The notes under the pieces were generated by a model. That model saw nothing but the letters and a program-made list of their open reading frames with translations. It was not told the origin of the DNA and made no database searches. Positions 11,478 to 31,817 of a DNA stretch of 64,000 nt are shown piece by piece. This DNA comes from Sporosarcina ureae (GTDB lineage: Bacteria; Bacillota; Bacilli; Bacillales_A; Planococcaceae). The position numbers and the translations under genes are program-made. The stretch lies in contig NZ_CP015207.1 in NCBI RefSeq assembly GCF_002101375.1, forward strand, positions 558,001 to 622,000, in the 5' to 3' direction. How positions within the stretch are numbered: position 1 is the stretch's first letter; each line of letters begins with the position of its first letter.

Positions 11478-12239
11478 TTACATTTTTGGGCCACCTGCAA
11501 CATAAAGAACTTGCCCTGAAATAAATGAGGCCTGTTTACTCGCAAAGAAACAGACTGCATGCGCTGCATCCTTTGGTAATCCGACACGCTTCACTGGTAT
11601 TTGGCTTCTTTTTTCTTCCTTCAGTTGTTCATAGTTGACTCCACTTTTTTCCGCAATTGACTTCGTCATCTCCGTCTCTATAAACCCTAGAATAACTGTA
11701 TTCACAGTTATATTATATTGACCAAGTTCCAATGCAAATTTTTTCGTAAACCACTGGATTCCGGCCTTTGTTATAGTATAATTTGCCTGTCCATCATTTT
11801 CCATAGCAGATGCCAAAGATAGATTAATGATACGACCATATGAATTATCAACCATAAGCTCCTGGGCATATTTACTACAAAGAAACACTCCTTTTAAATG
11901 AACATTCGTTAGGTGCTTCCAATCGTCTATGTTCATTTTATAAAGTAGTTCATAAGAGATCGTTTCATCGTTATTCACTAAAATATCTACTTTTCCATAG
12001 CTTTCTTTTATTACATTAAACACTTTAGCCAAATCAAATTCATTTGTAGTCTCGACAATAAACTTCTCGTAAGAAATATGTAACGCTTTAAATTCGTCGC
12101 AGGATTCGTTTAAAGCGAATTCATCCGAATCCAAAAGGTATACGTGTGCTCCTTCAAGGCCTAATTTTCTCGCTATTTCCTTGCCTATACCGCTTCCTGC
12201 TCCAGTAATAACCGCAACTTGATCATCGAAATTAGCCAA
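11478..12239 (-). CDS. Short-chain dehydrogenase/reductase, divergent
   Basis: A 253-residue Rossmann-fold SDR. The cofactor motif TGAGSGIG (12-19), the catalytic Ser in NLSLAS and the YxxxK pair (YTITK, about 155) are intact, and it ends in the usual SGQVLYVAGG. The normally strict NNAG motif is changed to NNDET, and VNAVAPGF reads VNTVILGF, so it has drifted more than the other two SDRs of the cluster; activity could be weakened. Likely role: oxidation of a 3-hydroxyacyl-CoA. It begins with TTG behind GGTG seven bases upstream. It is separated from the next cluster gene by about 700 bp containing a transposase remnant, consistent with local rearrangement. Confidence 0.8.
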   Translation of the reverse strand: MANFDDQVAVITGAGSGIGKEIARKLGLEGAHVYLLDSDEFALNESCDEFKALHISYEKFIVETTNEFDLAKVFNVIKESYGKVDILVNNDETISYELLYKMNIDDWKHLTNVHLKGVFLCSKYAQELMVDNSYGRIINLSLASAMENDGQANYTITKAGIQWFTKKFALELGQYNITVNTVILGFIETEMTKSIAEKSGVNYEQLKEEKRSQIPVKRVGLPKDAAHAVCFFASKQASFISGQVLYVAGGPKM

Positions 12240-12932
12240 AGCTCGACACCTTTTTCTTTAGTATTTTTCTTGTATAATTACATACAATATTGTCATGTGT
12301 GTCCATCATTTCTGGGTAATATCATTCTTTAAATTTATTTTAACTCTTCTAGCTCAGCCTACCACTCTTACCATTTTCAATCCTAATTTTCAGTATCAAC
12401 CTCGACTTTTATTTCCTTTTACTATGTATATGCATTAGCATTGCATTAAAATATCACACGCATGAAAACTGAATAATCTTAAATTAAACTCGAGCACAAA
12501 AAATCCTTTATAATGGTTGGGAGGTAGTAACCTATCCAAATCCAAAATAAAGGATTACACGTATGGATAAGATTACACGAAAAACAGCATTTGAGCAATG
12601 TGTTGGACTGATTTCTAATGAATTATTTGCAGATCAAGTGCAAGCCCATTGTCTTTATTACTATATAAAGAAGCTACACATAGCTTAATTGGTTTCGTTT
12701 TTTCTTCGAAAGCAAAACTACTAAAAAAGGGAAATAGAGTATTGAGATTTTTTACGGTGCTAGTAATCTAGTTTAGCCCGTATATTTCTAAATAATACGT
12801 CTCTGTTGTTCCAAACACTTTTATCTCCACAGGCCCACTTGCAAGATCAAAACTCAGCTTCCACTATTTATCGCTAAAAAAACAAAGCCAGAGAACTTTT
12901 GCTTTCTTACTCAATATATTCCTAAAACATCC
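12240..12932. other. Intergenic stretch with mobile-element and gene remnants
   Basis: About 690 bp without an intact gene. It holds the transposase fragment at 12563-12688 with a 10-bp inverted repeat in front. On the minus strand near 12775-12860 there is a stop-bounded frame reading about WKLSFDLASGPVEIKVFG, which looks like the tail of a lost protein I cannot name. The rest is AT-rich with no recognisable signal. Confidence 0.5.
12502..12688 (+). mobile_element. IS4-type transposase remnant (5' end only)
   Basis: From ATG 12563 a 41-codon frame begins MDKITRKTAFEQCVGLISNE and then stops at TAA 12686-12688. This opening resembles the N-terminus of IS4-like transposases common in Bacillales, which normally run to several hundred residues, so only the head of the gene remains. 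A 10-bp inverted repeat AATCCTTTAT / ATAAAGGATT (12502-12511, 12547-12556) sits in front and may be part of the old IS end or leader. No right end or target duplication was found. Family assignment is from memory of such openings and is moderate. Confidence 0.55.
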
Positions 12933-14108
12933 TTATAAACCTAGTTCTTTCGCAATAATAACTTTCATTATTTCATTGGATCCTGCATAAATCGGAGCTA
13001 CTGCAACATCACGATAAAGACGGGCAATTTCATACTCCTCCATATATCCGTATCCACCGTGAAGTTGCATACATTCCGGTGCCATTTTTCTTGCATTATC
13101 TGAAATCCACCATTTAGCCATAGACACTTGAGAATAAACATTTTGTCCTTCTAAATGCTTTACTATTAAATCATCAATAAATGTTCGACCAAGTTGAACT
13201 TGCGTCGCCATTTCCGCTAATTTAAATTGAGTGTTTTGGAATTTACTAATAGTCTGTCCAAACGCCTCTCGCTCTTTTACATATTCAAGCGTTACACTTA
13301 GCATCTGTTCCGCTAAAACTTGAGAATTTAATGCAGCAATAATTCTTTCTTGTTGCAATTCCTCCATTAAGTGGTAGAATCCTTTCCCTTCCTCACCAAG
13401 TAGATTCGAAGCTGGTACCCTTACATCTTCAAAAACTAGCTCTGACGTATCTTGACTATGAAGCCCAACCTTATCTAGTTTCCTACCACGAGAAAATCCA
13501 GGCATATTGCTTTCTACTAAAAACAAACTAATCCCTTTATGCCCAGGAATCGCCTTTGGATCTGTTTTACAAACAACAACAATCAAATCCGATAGAATAC
13601 CGTTTGAAATAAATGTTTTTTGACCGTTTATAATATAGCTGTCTCCATCTTTAATCGCCGTTGTACTGATCGATGCCAAATCAGATCCTGCGCCCGGTTC
13701 AGTCATAGCTATCGCACTAATCGTATCCCCACTCATTAAACCTGGAAAATACTTTTTCTTTTGCTTCTCTGTTCCAAAATTTTTGATATAAGGAGCTACA
13801 ATGCTACTGTGAACGACAATTCCTCCTAATCCCGATCCAATGCGCCTTAATTCTTCGCTTAAAATTACCGAAAAAATAAAGTCGGCACCCATACCTCCAT
13901 ATTTTTCATCTACCCATGGACAGAGAAAACCTTGTTCACCCATCTTTCTCCAAAATGTTTGTGGGACAAGACGATCTTTTTCCCATTGATCAAAATAAGG
14001 TACAGCTTCTTTTTCTAAAAACCTTCGAAGTGAATCTCGAAACATAATATGTTGCTCAGAAAAATAAGATCGATTTTTACTTTTGGCTGCCGAATTAGTT
14101 TTTGTCAT
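12933..14108 (-). CDS. Acyl-CoA dehydrogenase, long-chain (LCAD/FadE) type
   Basis: A 391-residue acyl-CoA dehydrogenase. AMTEPGAGSDLA and QLHGGYGYMEEYEIARLYRD are the family signatures. The C-terminal catalytic position reads IYAGSNEI, with no Glu, but ELQQERIIAA (about 245-254) has a Glu exactly where long-chain and isovaleryl-CoA dehydrogenases carry theirs. It therefore appears catalytically complete but of a different subclass from the other two full enzymes here; substrates are probably long or branched. GGAGGT stands six bases before the ATG. The Lys/Asn-rich N-terminal extension is short and not a signal peptide. Directly upstream lie an etfB fragment and a broken nitronate-monooxygenase gene. 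Confidence 0.88.
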   Translation of the reverse strand: MTKTNSAAKSKNRSYFSEQHIMFRDSLRRFLEKEAVPYFDQWEKDRLVPQTFWRKMGEQGFLCPWVDEKYGGMGADFIFSVILSEELRRIGSGLGGIVVHSSIVAPYIKNFGTEKQKKKYFPGLMSGDTISAIAMTEPGAGSDLASISTTAIKDGDSYIINGQKTFISNGILSDLIVVVCKTDPKAIPGHKGISLFLVESNMPGFSRGRKLDKVGLHSQDTSELVFEDVRVPASNLLGEEGKGFYHLMEELQQERIIAALNSQVLAEQMLSVTLEYVKEREAFGQTISKFQNTQFKLAEMATQVQLGRTFIDDLIVKHLEGQNVYSQVSMAKWWISDNARKMAPECMQLHGGYGYMEEYEIARLYRDVAVAPIYAGSNEIMKVIIAKELGL

Positions 14109-14128
14109 TTTTATACCTCCATGTATTT

Positions 14129-14260
14129 TTATGCTTTCTTAACCGCATATTCATCCGGGTTGAGGATAAAATTCGCTCCATTTTCCGTAATCTTACCATT
14201 TTTCACTGCGATTTTTTCTTACGTGTCGAATGAACGTTTAAAAAGTACCTAAATGCTCAT
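14129..14260 (-). pseudogene. etfB remnant (first 43 codons, two in-frame stops)
   Basis: Reading from ATG 14258-14260, the frame gives MSI-stop-VLFKRSFDT-stop-EKIAVKNGK and ends with LNPDEYAVKKA before TAA at 14129-14131. It lines up with the start of the intact EtfB at 44811 (MNIYALVKRTFDTEEK..NPYDEYAVEEA) without gaps apart from one residue. The stops replace Tyr4 and the Glu after Thr13. The rest of the gene, about 210 codons, is missing. It implies that cluster 2 once carried its own electron-transfer flavoprotein; electrons now presumably go to the core EtfAB. Confidence 0.8.
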
Positions 14261-14281
14261 TAAAATCCCTCTCTTGCAACT

Positions 14282-15247
14282 TCAAAACTTCTTCAATTGA
14301 CCCAACGCTTGGAAATACCCTTCTTTCAACGTTTCCACAACTTTTTCAATAGATTCAATTTCCCCGATTGCTCCAACACCTTGCCCGGCACCTCAAATGT
14401 TTTTCCATGATTTTGGCTCGTTTTCCCTCTAACCTGTGTTGAAATCGCGTTTCTTCTGTAAATTTTCCAGATTGAGACCAGCATTCAGAATGCTCGGAAT
14501 CAAATAATTCCCATTCTCGCCCGAAATGGCATCGGTGTAGATGATATCCTCCGACGTCGATTCAATAAGCATTTCCTTATACACATCGTTCGCCATGGTC
14601 TCTTCCGCCGCGATGAACTTTGTTCCCATATAGGCGAAATCCGCACCTAACGCTTGAACGGTGACAATGTCTTGTCCGTTTGAAATGCATCCCGTCACAA
14701 TAGTAAGCCCTTTCCAAAATTTTCGCACTTCCGAAACGAATGCGAACAGATTGAAAGTACCTCCGTGGCCACCCGCGCCATTGCAGACGAGGATGAGCCC
14801 ATTCACTCCCGATTCCGCTGCTTTCTGGGCATGCTTGATGTAAATGACATCCGATAAGACAACGCCCCCGTATTGATAGACGATTCCCACAAATTCTTCC
14901 GGATTTCCAAGCGATGTAATGACAATTGGAGACTCGTATTTTCGAATTGCCTCCAGATCGGCATCCAACCGTTTATTCGTCTTATGGACGATTAGGTTGA
15001 CATCCCAAGTGGAAATAGGGGCCGCCGGATAATTTAGCTTGGAATCCAATGCTTTCCGAATCGTTTCGAAACATTCCTCCAGCTCATCGGAAGTCCGTGC
15101 GTTCAATAACGAGAAAGTTCCGATAATCCGCGCTTTACATGCTTCAATGACCGATTGAGGGCTTGAGACGAGGAACATCGGCGCCATGATAACCGAGATG
15201 TCCGTCTGACCAATGTGCGCTTTTTTCTTCTCCTCCGTCATTTTCAT
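14282..15247 (-). pseudogene. Nitronate monooxygenase / 2-nitropropane dioxygenase-like gene broken by two stops
   Basis: The first 272 codons encode an NPD-type FMN TIM barrel (IMAPMFLVSSP at the start, CNGAGGHGG phosphate-binding loop near 160, GADFAYMGTKF near 205). A TAG at 14429-14431 ends this frame after RDFNTG, but the same frame continues with ENEPKSWKNI, a TGA at 14393-14395 where the family has Trp in DIWGAGQGVG, then GAGQGVGAIGEIESIEK and a final TGA at 14282-14284. The restored length (about 321) is normal for the family. No frameshift is needed. Either the gene is a recent pseudogene or a shortened protein is made; the missing C-terminal helix makes function doubtful. Confidence 0.8.
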
Positions 15248-15261
15248 TCACTAAAAACCTC

Positions 15262-15645
15262 CTAACGTCTTTTGTGAATGGTAAACTTCGCCGTCACCTT
15301 TATTTCCCCATTTTCATTTGATGCAATCGACTCACAAAGCCATGAATCATCCGTTTCTCCAACAATCTGTCCATTGACAACGATTTTCTCGCCCGGCTTC
15401 GTCATCGCATTAAAGCGGACCGTGAAGTTTTCCAGACAGTTCGAAGGGAACCAGTCGACAATCGCTTGTCCGATAAACCCCATGATCATCATGCCATGTG
15501 CAATGACACCGCCAAGTCCCACTTTTTCTGCAAACGGAACGACAGTATGAATCGGATTAAAATCGCCCGACGCCCCTGCATAGCGCACAATTTGTGTATG
15601 TGTGACCTCTTCCTTTTGGATTGTTTCAAACTGATGACCAACCAT
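15262..15645 (-). CDS. MaoC-like (R)-hydratase subunit, catalytic half
   Basis: A 127-residue single hot-dog domain. It contains the hydratase-2 motif YAGASGDFNPIHT (about 23-35), whose Asp and His are the catalytic pair, followed by VIAHGMM. It should hydrate a trans-2-enoyl-CoA to an (R)-3-hydroxyacyl-CoA. ATG 15643-15645 is used; a TTG one codon upstream has even better spacing from AGGAGG. The next gene upstream, 15 bp away, is a motif-less MaoC N-terminal-type protein, so the two probably form a heterodimer like HadA/HadB or actinobacterial ChsH1/ChsH2. Downstream is the broken nitronate-monooxygenase gene. Confidence 0.87.
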   Translation of the reverse strand: MVGHQFETIQKEEVTHTQIVRYAGASGDFNPIHTVVPFAEKVGLGGVIAHGMMIMGFIGQAIVDWFPSNCLENFTVRFNAMTKPGEKIVVNGQIVGETDDSWLCESIASNENGEIKVTAKFTIHKRR

Positions 15646-15660
15646 CAAAGCAATCGCCTC

Positions 15661-16077
15661 CTAATGTCTTTCAATGATCGTAGAGCGGCCAATCAACACC
15701 AATTCGCCATGTTGATTCAAAAACTCCTTTTTCAGTACAATGAAATTCATGGTCGCTTTCGCAAAAGCTTTTTCGACGACCGTATGAACAATAATTTCAT
15801 CTCCAACTTTCAACGTTCCTACATACTCGTAACTTTGCTCGCCGTGCAGCACTTTGGAAAGATTCAAATCAAGCACTTTGGAAATGGAAGTTGGATCGCC
15901 CCAAAATTCGATGACGGTTGAAAATGTCGGCGGCACTGCATCCCCGTTCAAATAACTTTCTTTTTGATCACCCAAAGCAATGGCAAGTTCCTTAATTTTC
16001 CCTTTTTCAATTGTATAAGTAAACGCCTCGATTTTTGTATTTTTGATCTGTTCTAAACGTGATTCGGTTCGGGTCAA
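15661..16077 (-). CDS. MaoC N-terminal-type hydratase partner subunit
   Basis: A 138-residue hot-dog protein of the MaoC_dehydrat_N/FAS1-dehydratase group. It shows the LHGEQSYEYVGTLKVGDEI strand-turn segment typical of the non-catalytic half and lacks the D-x-N-P-x-H hydratase motif. By analogy with HadAB and ChsH it would dimerise with the catalytic subunit encoded 15 bp downstream and shape a pocket for a bulky acyl-CoA. The start is TTG 16075-16077, eight bases behind AAGGAGG. Split catalytic and non-catalytic halves are usual for hydratases acting on large, branched or steroid-like acyl chains. Confidence 0.8.
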   Translation of the reverse strand: MTRTESRLEQIKNTKIEAFTYTIEKGKIKELAIALGDQKESYLNGDAVPPTFSTVIEFWGDPTSISKVLDLNLSKVLHGEQSYEYVGTLKVGDEIIVHTVVEKAFAKATMNFIVLKKEFLNQHGELVLIGRSTIIERH

Positions 16078-16122: not shown

Positions 16123-16905
16123 TCAATTATAGACGGCTTTCCGTTTCTCAAAAAAAGCTTGTACACCTTCTTTGAAATCTTCGGATTCAACACACAAGCA
16201 CTGCGAAGATATTTCCAACTCAAAGGTTTGCTCTAATTCATTTAACACATTGAAGTTGGCCATCTTTTTAATGAGTCCCATCGAAAGTCGTGGATTCTCT
16301 GCCATTTTTTTTGCCGCTACTAACGCTTCATCGAACACTACATTATCTTCGAATACACGATTGACCACTCCAACCCGCTCCATTTCATGGGCACTCACTT
16401 TTTCCCCTAGAAGCATCATTTCCATGGCCTTTTGTCGCCCGACTAATTCAGGGAGGAAATACATTGCACCTAAATCGGGCACAACACCAATTTTGATAAA
16501 ACTTTGAATGAAGACCGAAGATTTCGCGGCGAAAATCATATCGCAAGAAAGTGCCAAGCTGAAGCCTGCTCCCGCAGCAGCCCCATGGACAACCGCAAGA
16601 ACCGGTTTTTGTAGACGAAGGATGCTTTTGATGAGTTCCTGACTTTTTTCCATTCTCTCTTTAGTTTCTTTGGGATTCAAATGTTGAAGAGCCTTCAAAT
16701 CCCCACCCGCTGAAAACACTTCTCCTCTTGCCGCCAATACGATTGATCGAATCGAACAATCGTCACCAGCCGCAAGAAAAAAATGCTTCAATTCTTCTCG
16801 CATTTCTTCCATTAGTGCATTTCGTATTTCAGGCTTATTCATTGAAACGATACAGACACTTCCATCCATTTGGATGTCAATTGTTTGATAATCCGGATAC
16901 CGCAT
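16123..16905 (-). CDS. Enoyl-CoA hydratase/isomerase, PaaG-like
   Basis: A 260-residue crotonase. The oxyanion segments FSAGGDLKAL (about 64-73) and GAAAGAGFSLAL (about 105-116) are conserved. Where hydratases have the two catalytic glutamates, this protein has Ser in GAGFSLA and IKIGVVPDLGAMYFLP; the Asp in VPDxGA is the hallmark of PaaG/isomerase-type crotonases. It more likely shifts a double bond or opens a ring than simply hydrates. GAGGT precedes the ATG. It lies between the MaoC pair and the SCPx thiolase. A true hydratase role is possible but not favoured by the residues. Confidence 0.83.
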   Translation of the reverse strand: MRYPDYQTIDIQMDGSVCIVSMNKPEIRNALMEEMREELKHFFLAAGDDCSIRSIVLAARGEVFSAGGDLKALQHLNPKETKERMEKSQELIKSILRLQKPVLAVVHGAAAGAGFSLALSCDMIFAAKSSVFIQSFIKIGVVPDLGAMYFLPELVGRQKAMEMMLLGEKVSAHEMERVGVVNRVFEDNVVFDEALVAAKKMAENPRLSMGLIKKMANFNVLNELEQTFELEISSQCLCVESEDFKEGVQAFFEKRKAVYN

Positions 16906-16941: not shown

Positions 16942-18129
16942 TCATGGTTTTCGATACATCGTCACAACGACTGCGCCACCAAGTCCAAGATTATGTTGTA
17001 GCGCAACTCTTGCATTATCCACTTGCCGTTTTCCTGTCACCCCTCTGAGTTGCCAAACAAGTTCCGTACACTGGGCTAGACCGGTCGCTCCGATTGGATG
17101 GCCTTTTGACATCAAACCGCCGGAAGGGTTAACGACGAATTTTCCACCATACGTATTGTCTCCATCATTGATGAACTTTTCCGCTTCGCCTTCTTCACAC
17201 AATCCAAGCCCTTCGTAAGTGATTACTTCATTCGGGGTGAAGCAGTCATGCAATTCGACGACATCTACCTCTTCCACTCCGATTCCGGATTGCTCAAACA
17301 CTTGACGGGCCGCTCTTCTTGTCATGTCCGCGCCTACTAAATTCATGGCGCCTGTTGTGAAAGTCAGTTCCGTGTCCGTCGCCATGGATTGGGCGATAAT
17401 TTCCACGGCATTTTCATGGCCGTGCTTTTTTGCAAAGTCTTCGCTGCAAATGATTACGGCTGCCGCACCACATGAAGGCGGGCATGCATGGTATCTCGTC
17501 AAATATGGCGGAAAAATCATCGGAGAGTTTTGTACTTCTTCAAAGGTTAACGGATTGTCGAACATCGAATAAGGATTGTGGATGGCGTGGCTTCGAGTTT
17601 TCACCGCGACTTTGGAAAAAATGTCCGGATTTGCCCCGTACTTTTCGATGTATTCCATCCCACCGGAACCGAACATTCGGGCTGCACGCGGAGATTCCAA
17701 AGAATAACCGGGTCTCAATTCTTCCAACCGATCAACAAATGCCTGCATCGGCGTCATTCGATCTGAATACACAGAGGAAAGCGCCCCCGGCTTCATCTCT
17801 TCAAAACCGAAGGCAAGTGCACATTCTACAATGCCATTTTCAACAGCTTGCCTTGCTAAAAAGATTGCCGTCGAGCCGGACGAACAGTTATTGTTGACAT
17901 TGAATATCGGGATGCCGCTTAACCCGACTTTATACAAAGCTGCTTGTCCCGACGTACTATCTCCATAAACATAACTGGCAAAGGCGTGTTCAATTTCTTT
18001 GAAATCGATTCCCGCATCTTTGACTGCTCCTTTAATCGCTTTCGATGCCATCACTTCATACGGTTCCTGCATGCCTGGCTTCACAAACTTCACCATATCT
18101 ACGCCGATCACTTTGACTTTTCTTTTCAC
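16942..18129 (-). CDS. SCPx/lipid-transfer-type 3-ketoacyl-CoA thiolase
   Basis: A 395-residue thiolase of the sterol-carrier-protein-x branch. The nucleophilic Cys is in NNNCSSGSTA (about 85), the His in VVELHDCFTPNE (about 290), and GGLMSKGHPIGATG near 340 holds the second catalytic His. The C-terminal CxG of classical thiolases is replaced by HNLGLGGA, which is normal for this branch. It should cleave a 3-ketoacyl-CoA, often alpha-methyl-branched or sterol-derived. The GTG start at 18127-18129 is eight bases from AGGGGG; a TTG two codons earlier overlaps the ribosome site. The gap to the ligase gene upstream is about 100 bp. Confidence 0.87.
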   Translation of the reverse strand: MKRKVKVIGVDMVKFVKPGMQEPYEVMASKAIKGAVKDAGIDFKEIEHAFASYVYGDSTSGQAALYKVGLSGIPIFNVNNNCSSGSTAIFLARQAVENGIVECALAFGFEEMKPGALSSVYSDRMTPMQAFVDRLEELRPGYSLESPRAARMFGSGGMEYIEKYGANPDIFSKVAVKTRSHAIHNPYSMFDNPLTFEEVQNSPMIFPPYLTRYHACPPSCGAAAVIICSEDFAKKHGHENAVEIIAQSMATDTELTFTTGAMNLVGADMTRRAARQVFEQSGIGVEEVDVVELHDCFTPNEVITYEGLGLCEEGEAEKFINDGDNTYGGKFVVNPSGGLMSKGHPIGATGLAQCTELVWQLRGVTGKRQVDNARVALQHNLGLGGAVVVTMYRKP

Positions 18130-18235
18130 ATTCAAATCCCCCTTTTTTCATATCGTCTTTTTCACATGTCTTCACACTTCGCCTTTGTTCATTATGAGAA
18201 AGTCTAAATAGCAACATTCTGTCACCGTTCAGCCC

Positions 18236-22709: not shown

Positions 22710-22744
22710 TTCCGTCACCTCTCATCCAGTCTATTTCCTTACGG

Positions 22745-24388: not shown

Positions 24389-25543
24389 TCATCGTTGTAG
24401 TATCGTGACGGCACTATTCGGACCTGCCCCCATCGCATGTGCCAAGCCAAGCTTAGGATCGGCAACTTGTCGATGGCCAGCTTCTCCCCGCAATTGTAAG
24501 ACAAGCTCATGAATTTGTGCCAATGCTGTCGCACCGAGCGGATGACCCCTTGATAATAGTCCACCGTCCGTATTAACCGGCAATCTCCCCATCAAATCGA
24601 AGACACCTTCGCGCAACAATTCAGGTGCCGTTCCTCTCGCACAAAAACCGAGTTTTTCAATGTCCCAAAGTTCGCCGGGTCCCATGCTGTCGTACGCTTG
24701 CACGACGTCGATATCCTTGGGTCCGTAGCCAGCCATCTCAAAGGCCTGGCGGGCTGATTTCTCTACAATGCCTTCCGAAGGATAATGCTGGACACTTGCC
24801 GTAATGCCGGATTGATATGATTCTTCTCCATATACACCCGACACCAAAACAGAGCTTGCCACATGAATCGCCCGATTGCTTTCTGGCTTGCTTGTCAAAA
24901 CCATCGCGACCGCCCCATCCGCCAACGGACAACAATTCAGTAACCGAAGTGGAGAAGCTATCATTGCTGATTGGAGTACCTCCTCTGCAGAAACTTCTTT
25001 TTGAAATCGTGCATTGGGATTTAGCGAACCGTTTCGCCTATTTTTCACACTGACCCTTGCAAAATCTTCAACCGTAGCTCCGTATTGGCGCATGTATTCC
25101 ATCGTTTCCAAGGCATAGTTGGCCGGTTGTACGTTAAAGCCCATTGCCAATTGCCACCCCGGAAAAGCAGTGCTTGGGATTGGTCCTCTTGGCATCTTTT
25201 CAAATCCGATAGCGAGTACCGTTTCGTATTGCCCTAATCGAATCGAATCATAAGCAAGTCGAAACGCGGTTGCTCCACTTGAACAGGCATTTTCCACATT
25301 GACGATTGGAATTCCTGTAAATCCAATTTCCCCTACTACTCGATGCCCAGAAGCTGTCCCTTGGTAGACACTACCTGCAAAAACGGCTTCAACTTCCCCC
25401 CACTTGGTTCGGGCATCCCTTAAGGCGTTTACAATCGCTTCAGATCCCATCGAGCTAGCGGATACATCCGGGAAAAAACCCCATTTTGTCGTACTTGTTC
25501 CTTGAACATATACATCTTTCCATTGAGTATTTTTACCCATCAT
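24389..25543 (-). CDS. Thiolase-like Ltp2/BbsB-type protein, partner of DUF35 protein
   Basis: A 384-residue thiolase-superfamily protein. The Cys loop VENACSSGATAF is kept (about 85), and GGLLSRGHPLGATA is intact, but the block that reads HDCF in SCPx thiolases is QAYDSMGPGE here, so Tyr replaces His. The C-terminus is HAMGAGPNSAVTIL. Loss of the His with an adjoining DUF35 gene is typical of Ltp2-type retro-aldolases (cholesterol side chain) and BbsB-type thiolases (benzylsuccinate). Its ATG overlaps the TGA of the DUF35 gene (ATGA), indicating translational coupling and a complex. Retro-aldol versus thiolytic chemistry cannot be decided from sequence alone. Confidence 0.85.
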   Translation of the reverse strand: MMGKNTQWKDVYVQGTSTTKWGFFPDVSASSMGSEAIVNALRDARTKWGEVEAVFAGSVYQGTASGHRVVGEIGFTGIPIVNVENACSSGATAFRLAYDSIRLGQYETVLAIGFEKMPRGPIPSTAFPGWQLAMGFNVQPANYALETMEYMRQYGATVEDFARVSVKNRRNGSLNPNARFQKEVSAEEVLQSAMIASPLRLLNCCPLADGAVAMVLTSKPESNRAIHVASSVLVSGVYGEESYQSGITASVQHYPSEGIVEKSARQAFEMAGYGPKDIDVVQAYDSMGPGELWDIEKLGFCARGTAPELLREGVFDLMGRLPVNTDGGLLSRGHPLGATALAQIHELVLQLRGEAGHRQVADPKLGLAHAMGAGPNSAVTILQR

Positions 25544-25983
25544 CCCTTATCTCCTTCCCGAATAATTTCAGCTTTGAACTTGAAAGTCATAACATCATTG
25601 TCTTCTTCTTCATATAACTTCACTACAACCATCTCGACACGTTCGTCATTAGAGAGCGCCGGTTCATCAATGAGCTGTGAGAATATATTTACACCTTCAT
25701 CTAGTTGCACAATTCCATATGTATAAGGAACTGCCCCTTTATAAAAACCTCCGGCCGGTTGTCTTTCCACTTTTGTTAGCATCAAGACACGCCCTTTGCC
25801 GGAAAATGTGATTTCTTCCAATGATTCTTTGTGACAATTCATACAGAAGTTCAATGTTTTCCGTGGAAAAAATACCTCTCCACACGCCTCGCATCGACTG
25901 CCCAATAAGTGCGGTTTGCCATCTGTTTCCAATTGCCAAAGGCCATCCATAACCGGAATCGTTTTTCGTTCAATTGTCGTCAT
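25540..25983 (-). CDS. DUF35 Zn-ribbon/OB-fold protein, partner of thiolase-like protein
   Basis: A 147-residue protein with an N-terminal rubredoxin-like zinc ribbon (RCEACGEVFFPRKTLNFCMNC: two CxxC pairs about 14 residues apart) followed by an OB-fold that includes GKGRVLMLTKVER and the PYTYGIVQLDEG strand. DUF35 proteins bind thiolase-like enzymes and are needed for their activity or for acyl-CoA channelling (ChsH2-Ltp2, BbsA-BbsB, archaeal thiolase-HMGCS complexes). The start at ATG 25981-25983 is placed nine bases behind GGGGG. The 4-base ATGA overlap with the thiolase-like gene supports a 1:1 complex. The zinc ligands are complete. Confidence 0.87.
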   Translation of the reverse strand: MTTIERKTIPVMDGLWQLETDGKPHLLGSRCEACGEVFFPRKTLNFCMNCHKESLEEITFSGKGRVLMLTKVERQPAGGFYKGAVPYTYGIVQLDEGVNIFSQLIDEPALSNDERVEMVVVKLYEEEDNDVMTFKFKAEIIREGDKG

Positions 25984-26003
25984 TCCACTCATCCCCCGTT
26001 CGA

Positions 26004-26747
26004 TTAGCCGAATCTTCCGCCTGTCACGTGTAAAATATCCCCCGTTATGTAAGAGGAATCATCCGAAGCGAAAAACATCACCGCATTTGCGACATCTTCC
26101 GTCGAGCCAACACGCTTAATCGGAGAATCACGTTTTTGAAGCTCTTTAATCTTTTCGCATTTTGGATGGTCCCGTAAGGCGTTCGTTTCAATCAGACCCG
26201 GCGCTACAGCATTCACTGTAATATTGTGCTTGCCCAACTCCTTTGAGAGCGCTTTCGTAAGGCCAAGAACACCAGACTTTGCAGAGGAGTAATTGGCTTG
26301 TCCTGGATTCCCCAAATACGCACGGGAAGTAATGTTGACAATTTTCCCGTATTCTTGGGAAATCATATACTCAGCCGTATACTTCGCAAAAAGGAAGGAA
26401 CCTTTTAAGCAAACATTTATAACAAGATCCCAATCTTCCTCTTCCATTTCCGTGATTCTTGCATCACGGACAATTCCCGCATTGTTCACTAAAATATCAA
26501 TCTTGCCAAACTGTTCCTTCGTTTGTTGTACGACAGCGATAACTTCGCTTTTTTGTGAAACATCTGCCGGCATGGAATGGGCGTTGAAACCATCTACTTG
26601 AAATTCCTTCACCGTCTCTTCACATGACGTTTCATTAATGTCGGTAATAATGACTGTAGCGCCTTCGGTAAGCATTTTACGAGCAATTTCTTTACCGATT
26701 CCATCCGCTCCACCTGTTACAATTGCAACCCGATCTTGAAATCTCAT
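26004..26747 (-). CDS. Short-chain dehydrogenase, first gene of cluster 2
   Basis: A 247-residue SDR with TGGADGIG cofactor loop (9-16), NNAG (about 86), ITSRAYLGNPGQANYSSAKSG containing the catalytic Ser-Tyr-Lys, and a SYITGDILHVTGG end. The Asp in TDINE after beta-2 points to NAD+. Role: 3-hydroxyacyl-CoA dehydrogenase or a related alcohol oxidation. The start is ATG 26745-26747, eight bases from GGAGGGG; the frame is open further upstream but lacks a ribosome site. As the promoter-proximal gene, divergent from the regulator at 26900, it is likely the first cistron of the long minus-strand transcript. Confidence 0.88.
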   Translation of the reverse strand: MRFQDRVAIVTGGADGIGKEIARKMLTEGATVIITDINETSCEETVKEFQVDGFNAHSMPADVSQKSEVIAVVQQTKEQFGKIDILVNNAGIVRDARITEMEEEDWDLVINVCLKGSFLFAKYTAEYMISQEYGKIVNITSRAYLGNPGQANYSSAKSGVLGLTKALSKELGKHNITVNAVAPGLIETNALRDHPKCEKIKELQKRDSPIKRVGSTEDVANAVMFFASDDSSYITGDILHVTGGRFG

Positions 26748-26834
26748 TATAAAACCCCTCCCTACTTTACTATTCACCTCATTTTACTGCTTCCCAAAAA
26801 GATCAACCATGTCAATTGACTACAATGTTTGTTT

Positions 26835-26851
26835 GAATTATTGTATAATTC
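26835..26851. promoter_or_regulatory. Palindrome with -10-like core between cluster 2 and its regulator
   Basis: GAATTAT-tgt-ATAATTC, perfect 7-bp arms, encloses TATAAT (26844-26849) reading on the plus strand, about 50 bp before the regulator start. A TTGACT lies 22 bp upstream of that hexamer, too far for an ideal sigma-A promoter. The symmetric element is a candidate operator controlling one or both divergent genes. Confidence 0.4.
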
Positions 26852-26899
26852 ATACTAATACATAGATTCCGAAATAAAAGTAATGAAGGGGGATATCCA

Positions 26900-28786
26900 A
26901 TGACCACAAACGAAATCAGCTACAACGGTTTTATCGAAGAGCTTTTTCCGCTTATCCAAAGCAGTCAGTATGATGAAAATGAATGGGAAACTTTGAAAGC
27001 GAGGCTCCATGTGTATTACAAAGACGAAAAATTGCATTCCCACTTTTACGCACTTCAATCTTTGAAACAAAAGGCGGATTTCTTGAAATTCTCAACGAGT
27101 ACGTTTGAAATCCTTCATCAAATTAATTTGGAAGTCGCCTCTCTCGCTCCGCTAACTGACATTCTAAATTTAAGCGCAACTCGTTTATTGAATACCTCCA
27201 AAGCGCACTATGTCCTCATCGGAATGATTGATCACGAGAAATCAAGCATGCGCATTGATGCAGTCGCAGGGGAAGAACAGTCCGACTTGTTGTGTTTTGA
27301 GGAACCCTTAGATTCAAAGTTCCAAATGGAACTGGCAGACAACAAAGAGGCTTTCATCTTATCGGATATCGCTGAACACTCCTCTTTTGAATACACTTTA
27401 TTGCAACGCCTGGCGGAGAAAGACATCGTATCCCTCATCTGTTCGCCTTTAATCGCCAACGGGGAACGGATCGGCGTTGTCTTTTTAGCCCGGACCACTA
27501 CGTATCATTCAAAGCAGCCATTATTGCAAATGCTCAATCACTTTTGTTACCAGACAGCACTTGCCATTTCAAACGCAAAACTGTATACGAATGAAGTTCG
27601 TGTGAGTAAGCTACACGACGAACTCTTTGAAGAAGCACTCAATAAGGGCGGTAACGAAGGAATATTACAAAGAGTGGCCAATTTCATTGAGGAATCAATT
27701 TTATTGCTTGACGAGTTTGGAAACTCCATTTATGAAGCTATGCCTCGAAACCACGCATACAACAAAGACCATTTCAATCATGTGGAACTGTATAAACGCA
27801 TCCTTCATTCAAAAAATATTCATCAAGCCTTTTTTGAAGTATCGAACAACGGCCAAATTTATTCCGTTTTCACCATCACGTTGCATAATCAGACCGTCGC
27901 TTATTTAATTCTTGCAAAAAAAATGAATTCATATGATCCATTGAGCATTGTCGCAATCGGACAAGCAAAAAGCGTCTTGGCACTGCAAATAAATCAGGAA
28001 AAAACAAGCATTGAAGTCGAAAACCGATTACGCCAGGACTATCTGCACGATTTGATATCAGGCCTGGAAACAGAGGAAAATCTTATTCGAAGAGCACGTT
28101 ATTTAAATATCTCTTTCGAAAAGACGTATTCCATTCTTGTTTTAAGCCCGAGAAAGAACGAAGTGGATGATACACAACAATCAAATCGAATTCTTGAAAG
28201 GTTTAGTTACATGATCGATCAAGAACTATTGCCACTCAGCATGATCCAAGGCCAGAAAATAATTCTTGTCACACCTGACGAGCATATTCGCACCGTCACG
28301 AACTTCGTGCTCCACTATACGGAGGAAAAGCATCCCGATTTACACTTCCGTGTAGGTATTAGCAATCCCATTCTACAAACAAAAGAATACCTTAGAGGAT
28401 TCAACGAAGCCAAAAAAGCCTCTGAATTCGCTCATTCTTTCCAATTCAATGCACCGATTGTCCATTTCAAGGAACTCGGTATTATCGGGTTGTTATTCAA
28501 TACGGAGAATCCCGAATACATGAAAGAGTTCATGGACCGTTACTTAGGAAAAATCATCGAATACGATCTCCAAAACAAGTCTGAATTACTAAAAACGTTA
28601 GAGGTTTTTTTAGATAACGAATCCGCTATCCAGCATTCCGCTAAAGAGCTCCATATCCACTACAACACTCTTCGGTACCGGTTGAATCGAATCGAGGACA
28701 TCCTAGAGATCGATCTAACGCATACACAATACCGTCTCAACCTTCAAATCGCCATCATCATTCATCGGCTCGTTAAACAAGAGTGA
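26900..28786 (+). CDS. GAF-domain PucR/CdaR-type transcriptional regulator of cluster 2
   Basis: A 628-residue cytoplasmic regulator with an extra helical N-terminus (about 1-75), a GAF domain (about 80-225; ICSPLIANGERIGVVFLAR), a CdaR-type middle region (PDLHFRVGISNP near 490) and a C-terminal PucR helix-turn-helix (IQHSAKELHIHYNTLRYRLNRIED, about 575-598). It is the same architecture as the protein at 9221 and likewise divergent from the first gene of a catabolic cluster, so it probably activates cluster 2 on binding a pathway metabolite. GAAGGGGG precedes the ATG by six bases. A strong hairpin terminator follows the stop. The effector is unknown. Confidence 0.88.
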   Translation: MTTNEISYNGFIEELFPLIQSSQYDENEWETLKARLHVYYKDEKLHSHFYALQSLKQKADFLKFSTSTFEILHQINLEVASLAPLTDILNLSATRLLNTSKAHYVLIGMIDHEKSSMRIDAVAGEEQSDLLCFEEPLDSKFQMELADNKEAFILSDIAEHSSFEYTLLQRLAEKDIVSLICSPLIANGERIGVVFLARTTTYHSKQPLLQMLNHFCYQTALAISNAKLYTNEVRVSKLHDELFEEALNKGGNEGILQRVANFIEESILLLDEFGNSIYEAMPRNHAYNKDHFNHVELYKRILHSKNIHQAFFEVSNNGQIYSVFTITLHNQTVAYLILAKKMNSYDPLSIVAIGQAKSVLALQINQEKTSIEVENRLRQDYLHDLISGLETEENLIRRARYLNISFEKTYSILVLSPRKNEVDDTQQSNRILERFSYMIDQELLPLSMIQGQKIILVTPDEHIRTVTNFVLHYTEEKHPDLHFRVGISNPILQTKEYLRGFNEAKKASEFAHSFQFNAPIVHFKELGIIGLLFNTENPEYMKEFMDRYLGKIIEYDLQNKSELLKTLEVFLDNESAIQHSAKELHIHYNTLRYRLNRIEDILEIDLTHTQYRLNLQIAIIIHRLVKQE

Positions 28787-28794: not shown

Positions 28795-28840
28795 AATAGA
28801 GAGTGGAGGAATGAATACATTCCCACTCTCTATTTCTATT
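28795..28840. terminator. Bidirectional terminator between regulator and TRAP genes
   Basis: AATAGAGAGTGG (28795-28806) pairs with CCACTCTCTATT (28823-28834); A-run on the left and T-rich on the right. It separates the convergent regulator gene and dctM, and can serve both. Confidence 0.8.
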
Positions 28841-28875
28841 TGTCTGAAACAAGTATTTCTCCACATTTGTCTTCA

Positions 28876-30171
28876 TCACATTTTGGATGGTAAAAACAAT
28901 GCGATCTCAGGGAAGAAATATAAGATGAGAATCATAACAAAGATTGGAATAATGAACCGAGCCGCACCTTTAAAGATGGTTTCGAGTGAATAATCGGAAA
29001 CACCTTTCAATACATAACAATTCATTCCAACAGGTGGTGTGATTAAGCCTAATTCAATGATCAATACGATTATCACTCCGAACCAAATCAAGTCCATATC
29101 CATCGCTTGAATAATCGGTAAAATGATCGGAATTGTAATAACAATCATTGCCATGGAATCCATGAATGCACCAAGAATGAGATACATGACAATGATCAAC
29201 ATAAAAATCACAAAGTTCGGCATCGATAGTGAATCGATAAAATCCGCCATCAGCATCGGAACTCTTGTAATCGCAAGAAAGTAATTCAAGATGAATGCAG
29301 CCAGTATAATGGCAAATAAAAACCCTGTCGTTTTTAACGTATTGGATGCGGACTCGATAAAATTCTTGAACGTCAATTTCCGATTGAGCAACGCGATGAG
29401 CATTGCTCCAAATGCACCTACTGCAGCGGCTTCCGTCGGGCTGAATAGACCGACATACATCCCCCCGATGACTAGCGTGAACAATAATATAATCCATGTC
29501 ATCGATTTGAGCGAGTTAATTTTTTCTTTCCACCCACCCCCCGATGCTATAGGGGCGATGTCCGGATTTAACAGCACGGAAATATAGACCGTAAGCATAT
29601 ATAATCCGGTTAACATGATACCTGGAATAATCCCGGCAATGAGCAACTTACCAATCGATTGCTCGGTTAACATACCGTACACGATAAATGCCGTGCTCGG
29701 TGGTATGAGAATCCCCAACGTACCGCCTGCAACAATTGTCCCAGCGGAGAACGAGTCTTTATATCCGAATCGATCCATTTCCTTCGATGCAATCGCACCC
29801 ATCGTTCCAGTAGTCGCCAAGCTAGAGCCTGAAGCAGCTGCAAAAATCGCTGATGCACCGATTGTTGCTAAACCGAGCCCCCCTCTTAGGCGTCCCATCC
29901 ACAATCGGAACATCTTAAACAGCTCATTACTAATTCCTGAAACGAAAAGCAATTCCCCCATCCATATGAAGAGCGGAATCGTCGTTAATGTATAGCTAAA
30001 ACTATGATCCCAAATAATGGTCTCAATCGCGGTAGTGAGTGTTTTCCAACCTTTTAAATAATAGATACCGAGAAAAGCCGGAATCGCCATGGCAATAGCA
30101 ATCGGAAGTCGCAAAAACATGAGGATGAACATGACCACAATGCCCATTAATCCAATCATCTCTATAGTCAC
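28876..30171 (-). CDS. dctM: TRAP transporter large permease subunit (DctM)
   Basis: A 431-residue integral membrane protein with about a dozen hydrophobic helices. The family's conserved FLGIYYLKG near the start, SGSSLATTGTMG (about 118-129) and the LIPPSTAFIVYG re-entrant segment (about 163) are present. It forms the ion-coupled translocation pathway of a tripartite ATP-independent transporter and takes an organic acid from DctP. The start is GTG 30169-30171, six bases behind AGGAGG and one base after the dctQ stop; a TTG earlier in frame overlaps dctQ. The cargo is not predictable from DctM; its neighbours suggest the carboxylate degraded by cluster 2. Confidence 0.9.
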   Translation of the reverse strand: MTIEMIGLMGIVVMFILMFLRLPIAIAMAIPAFLGIYYLKGWKTLTTAIETIIWDHSFSYTLTTIPLFIWMGELLFVSGISNELFKMFRLWMGRLRGGLGLATIGASAIFAAASGSSLATTGTMGAIASKEMDRFGYKDSFSAGTIVAGGTLGILIPPSTAFIVYGMLTEQSIGKLLIAGIIPGIMLTGLYMLTVYISVLLNPDIAPIASGGGWKEKINSLKSMTWIILLFTLVIGGMYVGLFSPTEAAAVGAFGAMLIALLNRKLTFKNFIESASNTLKTTGFLFAIILAAFILNYFLAITRVPMLMADFIDSLSMPNFVIFMLIIVMYLILGAFMDSMAMIVITIPIILPIIQAMDMDLIWFGVIIVLIIELGLITPPVGMNCYVLKGVSDYSLETIFKGAARFIIPIFVMILILYFFPEIALFLPSKM

Positions 30172-30172
30172 A

Positions 30173-30670
30173 TTACCCCTCCTTTCCGGCAAACAAAATA
30201 ACGATGGAACGGATGAACTTCAAAAGTACTTCTAGCCCCCACATCGTGAAACCTAATGCAATGATGAATCGAAACGGAAAATGTGGGACGCCAAGCAAAT
30301 CCGTCGTTTTTATATTCCCCGTCATCGAATTCAATCCAATGTTTAAGCTTACCCATCCAATGAGGAGACAAATGATAAACGTGAAAAGATAGCTGATGAC
30401 ATCTGTGAATTCTTGTATTTTTTGGGGTAACCGATCGACAAGCAAACCGATTGAAATATGTGCATCTCTTTTTTGTGTGTATGCTAGCGCGAACATAATC
30501 AACACAACCATGCCTAGTTGCATAAATTCAACATCCCCCACTACAGGAGCTCCCAATTTGCGACTGATGACTGCATATGTCGTAAAGATCATCATACTCG
30601 TCATTGTGAGAATCGCTATCCACTTTCCAATTATCGTTAAAAAACCTATCCATTTTTCCACAATTCCCAT
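30173..30670 (-). CDS. dctQ: TRAP transporter small permease subunit (DctQ)
   Basis: A 165-residue membrane protein with four predicted helices (about 10-32, 48-66, 90-112, 130-152), the DctQ topology. GDVEFMQLGMVVLIMFALAY carries the conserved acidic residue after helix 1-2, and RDAHISIGLLVDRLP is the characteristic loop following it. It links DctP docking to the DctM channel. GGAGGTGA stands ahead of the ATG. The intergenic gap to dctP (67 bp) holds a hairpin, and dctM follows after one base, so DctQ and DctM are coupled while DctP can be made in excess. Confidence 0.88.
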   Translation of the reverse strand: MGIVEKWIGFLTIIGKWIAILTMTSMMIFTTYAVISRKLGAPVVGDVEFMQLGMVVLIMFALAYTQKRDAHISIGLLVDRLPQKIQEFTDVISYLFTFIICLLIGWVSLNIGLNSMTGNIKTTDLLGVPHFPFRFIIALGFTMWGLEVLLKFIRSIVILFAGKEG

Positions 30671-30692
30671 TCATTTCACCTCCGTATAGAAA

Positions 30693-30723
30693 AATATGTC
30701 TTGATTGTTAACCAAGACATATT
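30693..30723 (-). other. Intercistronic hairpin between dctP and dctQ
   Basis: AATATGTCTTG (30693-30703) and CAAGACATATT (30713-30723) form a perfect 11-bp stem with a 9-base loop. It has no T-run, so it looks like an mRNA-stabilising or attenuating element that lets the periplasmic-type binding protein be more abundant than the permeases. Confidence 0.6.
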
Positions 30724-30737
30724 ATGTTCCTTTTGAG

Positions 30738-31817
30738 TTAGAAAGGTAGTTTTAATCCAGCTTCAAGAAGCATGTCATTAAAATCTTCCATCATTTGGTC
30801 ACCAGGATACCCTTTCGCATTCGCTTCTTCCACCCATTCATCCCAAAGCGTTTTTGCAGAGGCTTTAAATTTCGCTTCTTCTTCAGGAGCTAATTCAATG
30901 ATCTCTCCCTTACCTTCAATTAACTTGCCCAGTTCGACATAGGCTTTGTCTAATTCCTTTTTGTGCGTCTCACTAAACAACTCAGCCAATTTTGGCCCAA
31001 GCACTTCGTCAAACATTTTTTGCAAGTCTTCGGGCAGCGATTCATAGTAATCTTTGTTCATGATTGGTATAACAGGCGTAACGGTTGTCCCCATTTTCAA
31101 GACATATGGTGCCACTTCGTAGTATTTATGACCCAAAACACCGATTGTCGAATAGAAAGCAGTATCCAAAGTACCTTTTTGCAAAGCTTCGTACGTTTCA
31201 TCCAACGGAATCGATACTGGAACACCGCCCCATGCTTCTACGAGGGGGACATCCGATTTACCTTGGACTCTCATTTTCAATCCTTTTATGTCTTCAATTT
31301 TTCTAACTGGCTTTTTGGAGAATAAATTATATGGATCTGTTACAAAGCTTCCACCTAAATAATGAACTTCCTCTTCAATCGCATCGACAGCGTATTTTTC
31401 CCCGAACTTCGTCATGATTTCACTGCCTATCGTAGAATCTGGGAAAGCGAACGGTAAATTCCCAATCGTATAAGGGAAGAAGATACTATCAAAATAATAA
31501 GTTGAAATGACCGGCGCTAAATCGGCTATGCCGCCTTGAGTATCCTCAAAAGCTGAAGTCGCCTTCCCCAAAGTCCCTCCATGAAATACATTCACCTTCA
31601 CCCGTCCATTTGTTTCTTTTTCCACAAATTCCGTCCACGGTTCATAAACGTTGTACACATAGTGATGCGTGGAAGGCTGGATGTTACTGACGTTCAATTC
31701 GTAGACTTTTTCAGTGTTTGTACCATTTGTACTTTCTGAACTACTGTCCTTTTCAGTATTACAAGCACCAAGAATTAATATTAACACCAAGCTTAACATG
31801 CCAAAAATCTTTTTCAT
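30738..31817 (-). CDS. dctP: TRAP transporter solute-binding lipoprotein (DctP)
   Basis: A 359-residue extracytoplasmic binding protein. MKKIFGMLSLVLILILGACN is a lipoprotein signal with lipobox LGAC at about 16-19, so it is anchored outside the membrane. The conserved DctP segment GLKMRVQGKSDVPLVEAWGG (about 172-191) contains the Arg that salt-bridges the substrate carboxylate, followed by PLDETYEALQKGTLD. AAAGGAG eight bases upstream places the start at ATG 31815-31817 rather than further upstream. A near-consensus cre lies just before the ribosome site. Substrate class: an organic acid, identity unknown. Confidence 0.9.
   Translation of the reverse strand: MKKIFGMLSLVLILILGACNTEKDSSSESTNGTNTEKVYELNVSNIQPSTHHYVYNVYEPWTEFVEKETNGRVKVNVFHGGTLGKATSAFEDTQGGIADLAPVISTYYFDSIFFPYTIGNLPFAFPDSTIGSEIMTKFGEKYAVDAIEEEVHYLGGSFVTDPYNLFSKKPVRKIEDIKGLKMRVQGKSDVPLVEAWGGVPVSIPLDETYEALQKGTLDTAFYSTIGVLGHKYYEVAPYVLKMGTTVTPVIPIMNKDYYESLPEDLQKMFDEVLGPKLAELFSETHKKELDKAYVELGKLIEGKGEIIELAPEEEAKFKASAKTLWDEWVEEANAKGYPGDQMMEDFNDMLLEAGLKLPF

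What the first reader, a model, noticed from the sequence alone, without database searches (positions are those of the whole stretch)
11478..31817. Candidate undescribed catabolic system: racemase + SCPx thiolase + Ltp2-type/DUF35 pair + TRAP importer in a spore former
The gene set combines an alpha-methylacyl-CoA racemase-like protein, two dehydrogenases of different catalytic type, a split MaoC pair plus a third MaoC, a PaaG-like crotonase, three SDRs, an SCPx thiolase and a thiolase-like/DUF35 pair, with an adjacent acid importer and a dedicated GAF regulator. In actinobacteria and proteobacteria, such components (Ltp2-ChsH2, ChsH1H2, ChsE, AMACR; BbsABCDEFGH) shorten sterol or bulky aromatic side chains. 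I know of no well-described Bacillota equivalent. The substrate is inferred to be an alpha-methyl-branched or alicyclic acid; no ring-opening genes are present here.
Basis: partly seen in the sequence, partly recalled or inferred. Interest (0 to 1): 0.78.

Follow-up and report, generated by a model that had tools for sequence, protein, structure and literature searches.

The report
Branched-acid breakdown cluster with odd thiolase
A Bacillus-like bacterium carries a gene cluster, shared sideways between species, that looks built to import and dismantle an unusual, probably branched or bulky, organic acid, using a thiolase-like enzyme from a distinct branch of its family whose active site mixes thiolase and aldolase features.

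Summary
The window holds a tight 14-gene run (26777 down to 14429), a TRAP importer operon and a GAF-PucR regulator. A colinear block sits in different surroundings in 2 of 67 other genomes of the genus. It joins two cassettes. One is SCPx/AMACR-like, resembling peroxisomal branched-chain beta-oxidation, and also occurs in other families of the class. The other, SDR-DUF35-thiolase-MaoC-ACAD-racemase, has its nearest relatives in Desulfotomaculum-type Bacillota and deltaproteobacterial contigs.

Central correction: the 24389-25543 protein is not Ltp2-type. It keeps the thiolase nucleophile Cys and the GHP His, but the thiolase HDCF/HDAF loop is replaced by Tyr-Asp-(Ser/Thr). All 22 relatives covering the site share the Tyr-Asp; they form a well-supported clade, and none of the 25 NCBIfam models shown reaches its cut-off. 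Ltp2-type operons do exist in this genome, outside the window.

Best reading: TRAP import, CoA ligation, alpha-epimerisation, then beta-oxidation of an alpha-branched or bulky acid, with two thiolases for different rounds. Substrate and chemistry are unproven. New variant of a known kind.

The parts
31869..32339 (-). ACAD3 remnant: acyl-CoA dehydrogenase with its middle (about 250 codons) deleted; intact 418-aa homologue heads the block in G031
30738..31856 (-). TRAP solute-binding lipoprotein, DctP family (likely start at 31817)
   Evidence: (271 of 372 residues only)
30173..30670 (-). TRAP small membrane subunit, DctQ
28876..30192 (-). TRAP large membrane subunit, DctM
26900..28786 (+). GAF + PucR-type helix-turn-helix regulator (PucR2), divergent from the catabolic operon; a 36% identical regulator lies by the paralogous unit
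26778..26899 (.). divergent intergenic region; two blocks conserved in G031 and G452, one holding the inverted repeat GTAT-N5-ATAC: candidate operator
26004..26777 (-). SDR3, FabG-like, putative 3-hydroxyacyl-CoA dehydrogenase
25540..25992 (-). DUF35 (zf-ChsH2 + OB_ChsH2_C) partner, overlaps the thiolase gene by 4 bp
24389..25543 (-). THL: thiolase-superfamily protein of the YD[S/T] clade (Cys87, Tyr284-Asp285-Ser286-Met287, His334)
23909..24373 (-). MaoC3, hot-dog hydratase
22745..23896 (-). ACAD2, acyl-CoA dehydrogenase (Glu in the EGT loop)
21657..22718 (-). AMACR-like family III protein with His134/Asp165/Glu246 matching the racemase triad
20820..21620 (-). SDR2
19836..20786 (-). MBL-fold hydrolase, role unknown (thioesterase/lactonase-like?)
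18236..19816 (-). AMP-dependent acyl-CoA ligase
16942..18135 (-). SCPx/SCP2-type thiolase, canonical C, HDCF, GHP motifs
16123..16905 (-). crotonase-fold enoyl-CoA hydratase/isomerase
15661..16077 (-). MaoCa, N-terminal-type half of the split hydratase pair
15262..15648 (-). MaoCb, catalytic-type half of the split hydratase pair
14429..15247 (-). NMO/FabK-like flavoprotein gene with two in-frame stops (codons 273 and 285 of 321); similarity continues to 14285; intact in G031 (324 aa) and G452 (321 aa)
12933..14108 (-). ACAD1; present in window and G452 blocks, absent from the G031 block
11478..12239 (-). SDR1; trailing gene, present in G452, absent from the G031 block

Best explanation
The region is a horizontally shared catabolic block for a carboxylic acid that ordinary fatty-acid oxidation cannot handle, most likely because it is alpha-methyl-branched or carries a bulky group near the carboxylate. 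Proposed route: the TRAP system imports the acid; the ligase makes its CoA thioester; the AMACR-like protein sets the alpha-carbon stereochemistry; ACADs introduce the double bond; MaoC hydratases add water; SDRs oxidise the alcohol; two thiolases cut. The THL-DUF35 complex would cut the bulky or branched 3-oxoacyl-CoA of one round, and the SCPx thiolase the 2-methyl-3-oxoacyl-CoA of another, giving propionyl-CoA. PucR2 would switch the divergent operon. Shown: gene identities, order, conservation, retained catalytic residues. Inferred: the order of steps, stereochemistry, substrate, and that THL does thiolysis rather than retro-aldol cleavage.
For: Colinear block in 3 of 68 genomes of the genus counting this one; none of six genes next to the block in the window (32814-39721 and 4370-5743) has a match beside the blocks of G031 or G452, and three more match only paralogues at 25-42%. 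Third-position-biased divergence. A second copy of the core in the same genome, SDR-DUF35-THL-MaoC-ACAD-AMACR, also comes with TRAP binding-protein and large-subunit genes (31% and 39% identical), an ATP-grasp-type CoA ligase and a GAF-PucR regulator (36%), so importer and regulator belong to the unit. In loci from other taxa DUF35 lies immediately upstream of THL in 21 of 21, with ACAD in 16, SDR in 14, family III protein in 13, ligase in 8 and TRAP in 3 (6 kb, same strand). SCPx-ACAD1-MaoCa-MaoCb-SDR2-type genes, mostly with ligase and AMACR-like genes, recur in two other families of the class, in G336 near an alkyl sulfatase. Racemase triad retained. THL keeps Cys87 and His334; its sequence and fold are nearest to thiolases.
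Against: No substrate is demonstrated. The AMACR-like protein scores higher against CoA-transferases (YfdE, 191.8 bits) than against AMACR (143 bits) among solved structures. THL lacks the HDCF/HDAF His of thiolases, so thiolysis is not assured. Two block genes are broken in this genome (NMO, ACAD3), so the window copy may be losing function or use ACAD1 instead. No TRAP small subunit was found beside the paralogous unit (tblastn at 1e-3). 5 of 21 distant loci have no ACAD and 7 no SDR within 6 kb (several sit near contig ends, but L026 and L027, with flanks of 4 to 10 kb, have neither); TRAP is near in only 3 of 21 and a MaoC in 1 of 21.
Confidence: 0.57

Rival explanations
1. THL-DUF35 is a retro-aldolase like Ltp2-ChsH2 or Sal-Shy: it cleaves a tertiary or branched 3-hydroxyacyl-CoA made by a MaoC hydratase, using the Tyr of its YD loop as base.
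For: Tyr284 sits where Ltp2 (YDHF) and Sal (YDCY) carry their catalytic Tyr (motifs from PMC12329534; alignment with the genome's two Ltp2-type proteins); DUF35 partner in 21 of 21 loci; MaoC genes adjacent in this genome, G031 and G452.
Against: Nucleophile Cys87 and GHP His334 are invariant, whereas CtSal has Gly at the Cys position and so cannot thiolyse; Ltp2's second Tyr position holds His; an SDR accompanies 14 of 21 loci and a MaoC only 1 of 21; sequence and fold scores favour thiolases.
Confidence: 0.22
2. The block degrades an aryl-alkanoic (phenylpropanoid-like) acid rather than a methyl-branched aliphatic one; the TRAP protein binds an aromatic acid and beta-oxidation shortens the side chain.
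For: Among the solved binding proteins closest in sequence to the window's is TarP_Rhp, solved with 4-hydroxyphenylacetate (7nqg; with 271 of 372 residues); in Desulfococcus multivorans a ligase, acyl-CoA dehydrogenase, hydroxyacyl-CoA dehydrogenases and a thiolase are proposed for 3-phenylpropanoate and a TRAP system for phenylacetate (PMC5109826, passages); many THL relatives lie in contigs labelled as sulfate-reducer groups.
Against: TRAP fold scores are tied across many ligand classes; the binding-protein model is weak (mean pLDDT 64.6); none of the block's families is a ring-attacking one; AMACR and SCPx are not needed for unbranched side chains (recalled).
Confidence: 0.25
3. The family III protein is a CoA-transferase and the pathway is Bbs-like, acting on a dicarboxylic or succinate-type acid activated by CoA transfer.
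Against: It keeps the racemase His/Asp/Glu triad, as do 17 of 27 family III rows (16 of 24 distinct) in the loci compared; 7 rows (5 distinct) lack the His; benzylsuccinate CoA-transferase has two different subunits (one search lists both) and only one gene is here; a ligase is present.
Confidence: 0.13
4. Ordinary fatty-acid or leucine-type oxidation genes gathered by chance.
For: All components belong to common superfamilies; a leucine-type operon lies next door (844-8988, by eye).
Against: Rare (THL in 2 of 398 and SCPx in 7 of 398 genomes of the class sample), colinear across species, core repeated with its own importer and regulator genes.
Confidence: 0.05

Closest known systems
SCP2/SCPx thiolase with AMACR and (R)-specific hydratase/dehydrogenase (peroxisomal branched-chain and bile-acid beta-oxidation; pathway recalled)
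   Same: SCPx thiolase with C/HDCF/GHP motifs over the NCBIfam cut-off; AMACR triad; MaoC and SDR types; ligase
   Different: Bacterial operon with ACADs instead of oxidase, split MaoC pair, TRAP importer, PucR regulator and a second thiolase-DUF35 pair
Benzoylsuccinyl-CoA thiolase BbsAB (7pxp/7pyt)
   Different: BbsB has HDAF where this clade has YD[S/T]; far below the BbsA and BbsB model cut-offs
Ltp2-ChsH2 and Sal-Shy steroid side-chain aldolases (6ok1, 9myr)
   Same: Tyr at the first position of the YDxx loop; DUF35 partner; MaoC and ACAD neighbours in this genome
   Different: This clade keeps the thiolase Cys and GHP His; lower sequence and fold similarity
[quoted passage not shown]
   Different: No HMG-CoA synthase among the block's genes; catabolic neighbours

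Membership tests
Ltp2/Sal-type DUF35 aldolase (24389-25543) | Loss of the thiolase nucleophilic Cys (Gly in CtSal) | tested here: not met
   Cys87 in window and in 21 of 21 relatives covering it; Gly in CtSal from PMC12329534 Discussion and in the genome's two Ltp2-type proteins
Ltp2/Sal-type DUF35 aldolase (24389-25543) | YDHF (Ltp2) or YDCY (Sal) loop with catalytic Tyr plus His/Cys | tested here: not met
   Tyr and Asp present, third residue Ser/Thr (21 of 22) or Ala (1 of 22)
Ltp2/Sal-type DUF35 aldolase (24389-25543) | Second catalytic Tyr (Ltp2 Tyr344) in the GHP-equivalent position | tested here: not met
   His334 in window and 24 of 24 relatives covering it; Tyr at the aligned place in the two Ltp2-type proteins of the genome and in 6ok1
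Ltp2/Sal-type DUF35 aldolase (24389-25543) | DUF35 partner encoded next to it | tested here: met
   window, and 21 of 21 loci
SCP2-type thiolase (24389-25543) | Cys nucleophile, HDCF, GHP His | tested here: not met
   Cys and GHP present, HDCF replaced by YD[S/T]; under the cut-off of each of the 25 best NCBIfam models shown of 50
SCP2/SCPx thiolase (16942-18135) | Cys nucleophile, HDCF, GHP His and family model | tested here: met
   NNNCSSGS, HDCF, GHP; NF006102 631.5 bits over cut-off 436
AMACR (21657-22718) | His126/Asp156/Glu241 triad of MCR | tested here: met
   GHDLNY, IADLAA, VEEKFW against MCR GHDINY, VGDFGG, IEPQFY; matched by motif, no residue-by-residue alignment to MCR was printed
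AMACR (21657-22718) | Closer to racemases than to CoA-transferases | tested here: inconclusive
   CoA-transferases score higher than AMACR; no tree of the superfamily was built
AMACR (21657-22718) | Racemase activity | not testable with these tools
   needs assay
Benzoylsuccinyl-CoA thiolase BbsAB | NCBIfam BbsA/BbsB equivalog cut-offs | tested here: not met
   209 against 750 bits (BbsB) and 52.5 against 250 (BbsA)
TRAP transporter | DctP, DctQ and DctM subunits together | tested here: met
   Pfam PF03480, PF04290, PF06808, all over cut-off
PucR-type regulator (26900-28786) | C-terminal HTH_30 | tested here: met
   PF13556 69 bits, with GAF

The most novel reading that the evidence does not exclude
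The YD[S/T] clade is a further catalytic type of the DUF35-partnered thiolase superfamily: it keeps the thiolase Cys-His pair but uses a Tyr in place of the His of HDCF/HDAF, to cleave alpha-branched or sterically crowded CoA thioesters that neither ordinary thiolases nor Ltp2/Sal aldolases accept. It spread as a cassette among sulfate-reducer-type bacteria, Desulfotomaculum-type anaerobes and, rarely, Bacillus-like spore formers.
Probability: 0.35. Interest if true: 0.75.

Novelty: new variant of a known kind. Interest (0 to 1): 0.52.

Why it matters
If right, it adds a catalytic type between thiolases and DUF35 aldolases, which makes the evolutionary switch between retro-Claisen and retro-aldol cleavage testable by changing one loop. 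It also places peroxisome-like branched-acid oxidation and DUF35-dependent carbon-carbon cleavage in Bacillus-like bacteria, where the paper listings searched showed none described, and links them to poorly understood pathways of anaerobes.

Tried and rejected
Ltp2 assignment of 24389: rejected on catalytic residues, sequence rank and fold rank.

Genomic island at the tRNA-Arg (32666-32741), whose 3' end faces the block: no second copy of the tRNA 3' end in the window (up to 3 mismatches), and no tRNA in the fetched stretches around the blocks of G031 and G452 or the paralogous unit. PHROGs scan of two flanking ORFs found a phage-type DNA polymerase family upstream of the G452 block and a DnaD-like helicase loader upstream of the paralogous unit: phage-like, but such genes are also common on chromosomes (recalled). 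Not settled; the block does have different surroundings in the three genomes.

NMO decay by codon positions: its ratio is the highest against G452 (0.52) but not against G031 (0.34; ECH 0.39), so that test alone is weak; the two stops carry the claim.

Naphthalene (thn) pathway as a match: its CoA-transferase ThnP is family I, not III. Rfam: only a tRNA and a T-box in the window, neither in the operon. Ring-hydroxylating oxygenases: two PF00848 matches in the genome, neither near the block. Naming the organism: no tool gave a name; a Bacillus-like host is inferred from gene order (recalled).

ACAD catalytic bases: ACAD2 shows Glu in its EGT loop and ACAD1 Ala there; that this means different base positions is recalled, not tested.

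Papers: PMC12329534 read as abstract with the start of its introduction, passages and Discussion part 1; PMC12246613, PMC11659651 and PMC5109826 as passages; all others in the search listings only.


Full report
What is there. The window is G000:C1:558001-622000 of a one-contig 3.35-Mb genome. From 32339 down to 11478 lie, on the minus strand, an ACAD remnant, TRAP SBP/DctQ/DctM, SDR3, DUF35, THL, MaoC3, ACAD2, an AMACR-like gene, SDR2, an MBL-fold gene, an acyl-CoA ligase, an SCPx thiolase, a crotonase, MaoCa, MaoCb, a broken NMO/FabK-like gene, ACAD1 and SDR1. A GAF-PucR regulator on the plus strand sits between the TRAP operon and the catabolic operon. The 14 genes from SDR3 to NMO have junctions of -4 to 100 bp; ACAD1 and SDR1 follow after 320 and 693 bp.

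Conservation. THL orthologues at E <= 1e-100 occur in 2 of 398 genomes of a class-wide sample and 3 of 68 of the genus, counting this genome. G031 and G452 carry the block in the same order, and six chromosomal genes that flank it in the window have no match in the stretches fetched around those blocks. G031 has an intact ACAD3 (418 aa) and NMO (324 aa) but no ACAD1 or SDR1; G452 has ACAD1, SDR1 and an intact NMO (321 aa) and only N-terminal remnants of ACAD3; the window has ACAD1, SDR1, an ACAD3 remnant (matching residues 7-45 and 299-418) and an NMO with two in-frame stops. In the two blocks with ACAD1, ACAD3 is lost. Divergence is concentrated in third positions for each gene compared. NMO has the highest ratio of first-and-second to third-position change against G452 (0.52; the others 0.10-0.40) but not against G031 (0.34; ECH 0.39).

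Two cassettes. SCPx at E <= 1e-120 is in 7 of 398 class-sample genomes, 4 genera. Its neighbours ACAD1, MaoCa, MaoCb and SDR2, with ligase and often AMACR-like genes, recur in families f22 and f55; G379 has no MaoC pair and G094 no AMACR-like gene in the stretch fetched. In G336 an alkyl sulfatase and a zinc alcohol dehydrogenase lie close by; in G310 an FMO/Baeyer-Villiger-like enzyme, an aldehyde dehydrogenase and an alpha/beta-hydrolase. The THL cassette has full-length relatives at 54-65% identity in contigs labelled Desulfotomaculum/Peptococcaceae/Firmicutes, Desulfobacterales and other Deltaproteobacteria, Proteobacteria and one Gemmatimonadetes. In 21 of 21 such loci DUF35 lies directly upstream; ACAD is near in 16, SDR in 14, a family III protein in 13, ligase in 8, TRAP in 3 and MaoC in 1 (four partial loci of the 25 were left out). 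L028, L029, L030 and L032 show SDR-DUF35-THL-ACAD2-AMACR in the window's order, without MaoC3. G336 and G310 have SDR3- and ACAD2-type genes (G336 also MaoC3) but no separate THL or DUF35 hit in the stretches fetched, so the pair is separable. The same genome holds a second THL unit at about 2.498-2.513 Mb (THL 69% identical) with its own ATP-grasp-type ligase, TRAP binding-protein and large-subunit genes and a GAF-PucR regulator; no TRAP small subunit was found there.

The racemase question. Sequence search favours CoA-transferases, but the motifs around MCR's His126, Asp156 and Glu241 (PMC12246613 passages) correspond to GHDLNY, IADLAA and VEEKFW here. Of 27 family III rows in the loci compared, 17 keep all three residues (16 distinct), 3 keep His and Asp only, and 7 (5 distinct) lack the His.

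Ltp2-type operons elsewhere. At 538-545 kb (L055) and 181-193 kb (L057) the genome has operons with two ACADs, two MaoC-type or MaoC-sized genes, DUF35 and an Ltp2-like protein whose best solved match is 6ok1 (364.7 and 249.5 bits). One MaoC-sized ORF of L055 matched no Pfam family, and some members were placed by BLAST only. The first protein passes NF005892 (500.4 against 469), the second does not (334.1). Both have the second Tyr and Gly at the nucleophile place. The second occurs in 24 of 68 genus genomes, counting this one; the first has no close relative in the other 397 genomes of the class sample (best 41%), and was not searched genus-wide.

How it probably works. Import, ligation, epimerisation, dehydrogenation, hydration, oxidation and two kinds of thiolysis, as stated in the best explanation. 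The substrate class (alpha-methyl-branched, or bulky/aryl) is inferred from AMACR plus SCPx and from neighbours in relatives; sequence alone cannot decide it.

Novelty. The listings show no described Bacillota system of this kind and no paper on a YD[S/T] thiolase clade; I saw titles and abstract starts only, and that library lacks most subscription journals. I file it as a new variant of a known kind.

Noticed in passing
G000:C1:524000-545000 (L084, L055): A large array: MBL-like, SDR-like, two crotonase-like (these by eye), three family III CoA-transferase genes (one double length), ACAD, DUF35, Ltp2-type protein (500 bits to the lipid-transfer model), a MaoC-type and a MaoC-sized gene, ACAD, ligase. 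The Ltp2-type protein has no close relative in the class sample apart from this genome.
   Followed up: partly
G000:C1:181042-193037 (L057): A second Ltp2-type operon with MaoC pair, DUF35, two ACADs and, by eye, a CoA ligase, ALDH-like, MFS-like and EtfAB-like genes; its Ltp2-type protein is in 24 of 68 genomes of the genus.
   Followed up: partly
window 844-8988: Leucine/isovalerate-type operon (ACAD, ligase, biotin carboxylase, HMG-CoA lyase-like, crotonase, carboxyltransferase; by eye from ORF starts), beside a second regulator of GAF-PucR look at 9221-11029.
   Followed up: no
window 32814-59624: Gene order (RNase PH, racemase, Sdh, UvrC, Trx, EtfAB, FadR-like, MutS2, PheST; by eye) resembles the Bacillus subtilis chromosome (recalled), with a T-box leader at 58562-58800.
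   Followed up: no
window 26778-26899; L052 18302-18426; joined L071+L072 18127-18255: Two conserved blocks between PucR2 and SDR3 in all three genomes, one with the inverted repeat GTAT-N5-ATAC: candidate PucR2 operator.
   Followed up: partly
L036 6081-9927: In Desulfotomaculum copahuensis the THL-DUF35 pair lies between ORFs that look like the large and small subunits of a B12-dependent acyl-CoA mutase (by eye), a different pathway context.
   Followed up: no
G000:C1:2513000-2522000 (L082): Downstream of the paralogous THL unit: a sulfatase-like gene, a BCCT-type transporter, a ferredoxin reductase-like gene, an amidohydrolase (PF04909) and a Rieske ferredoxin-like gene (all but the amidohydrolase by eye).
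   Followed up: no
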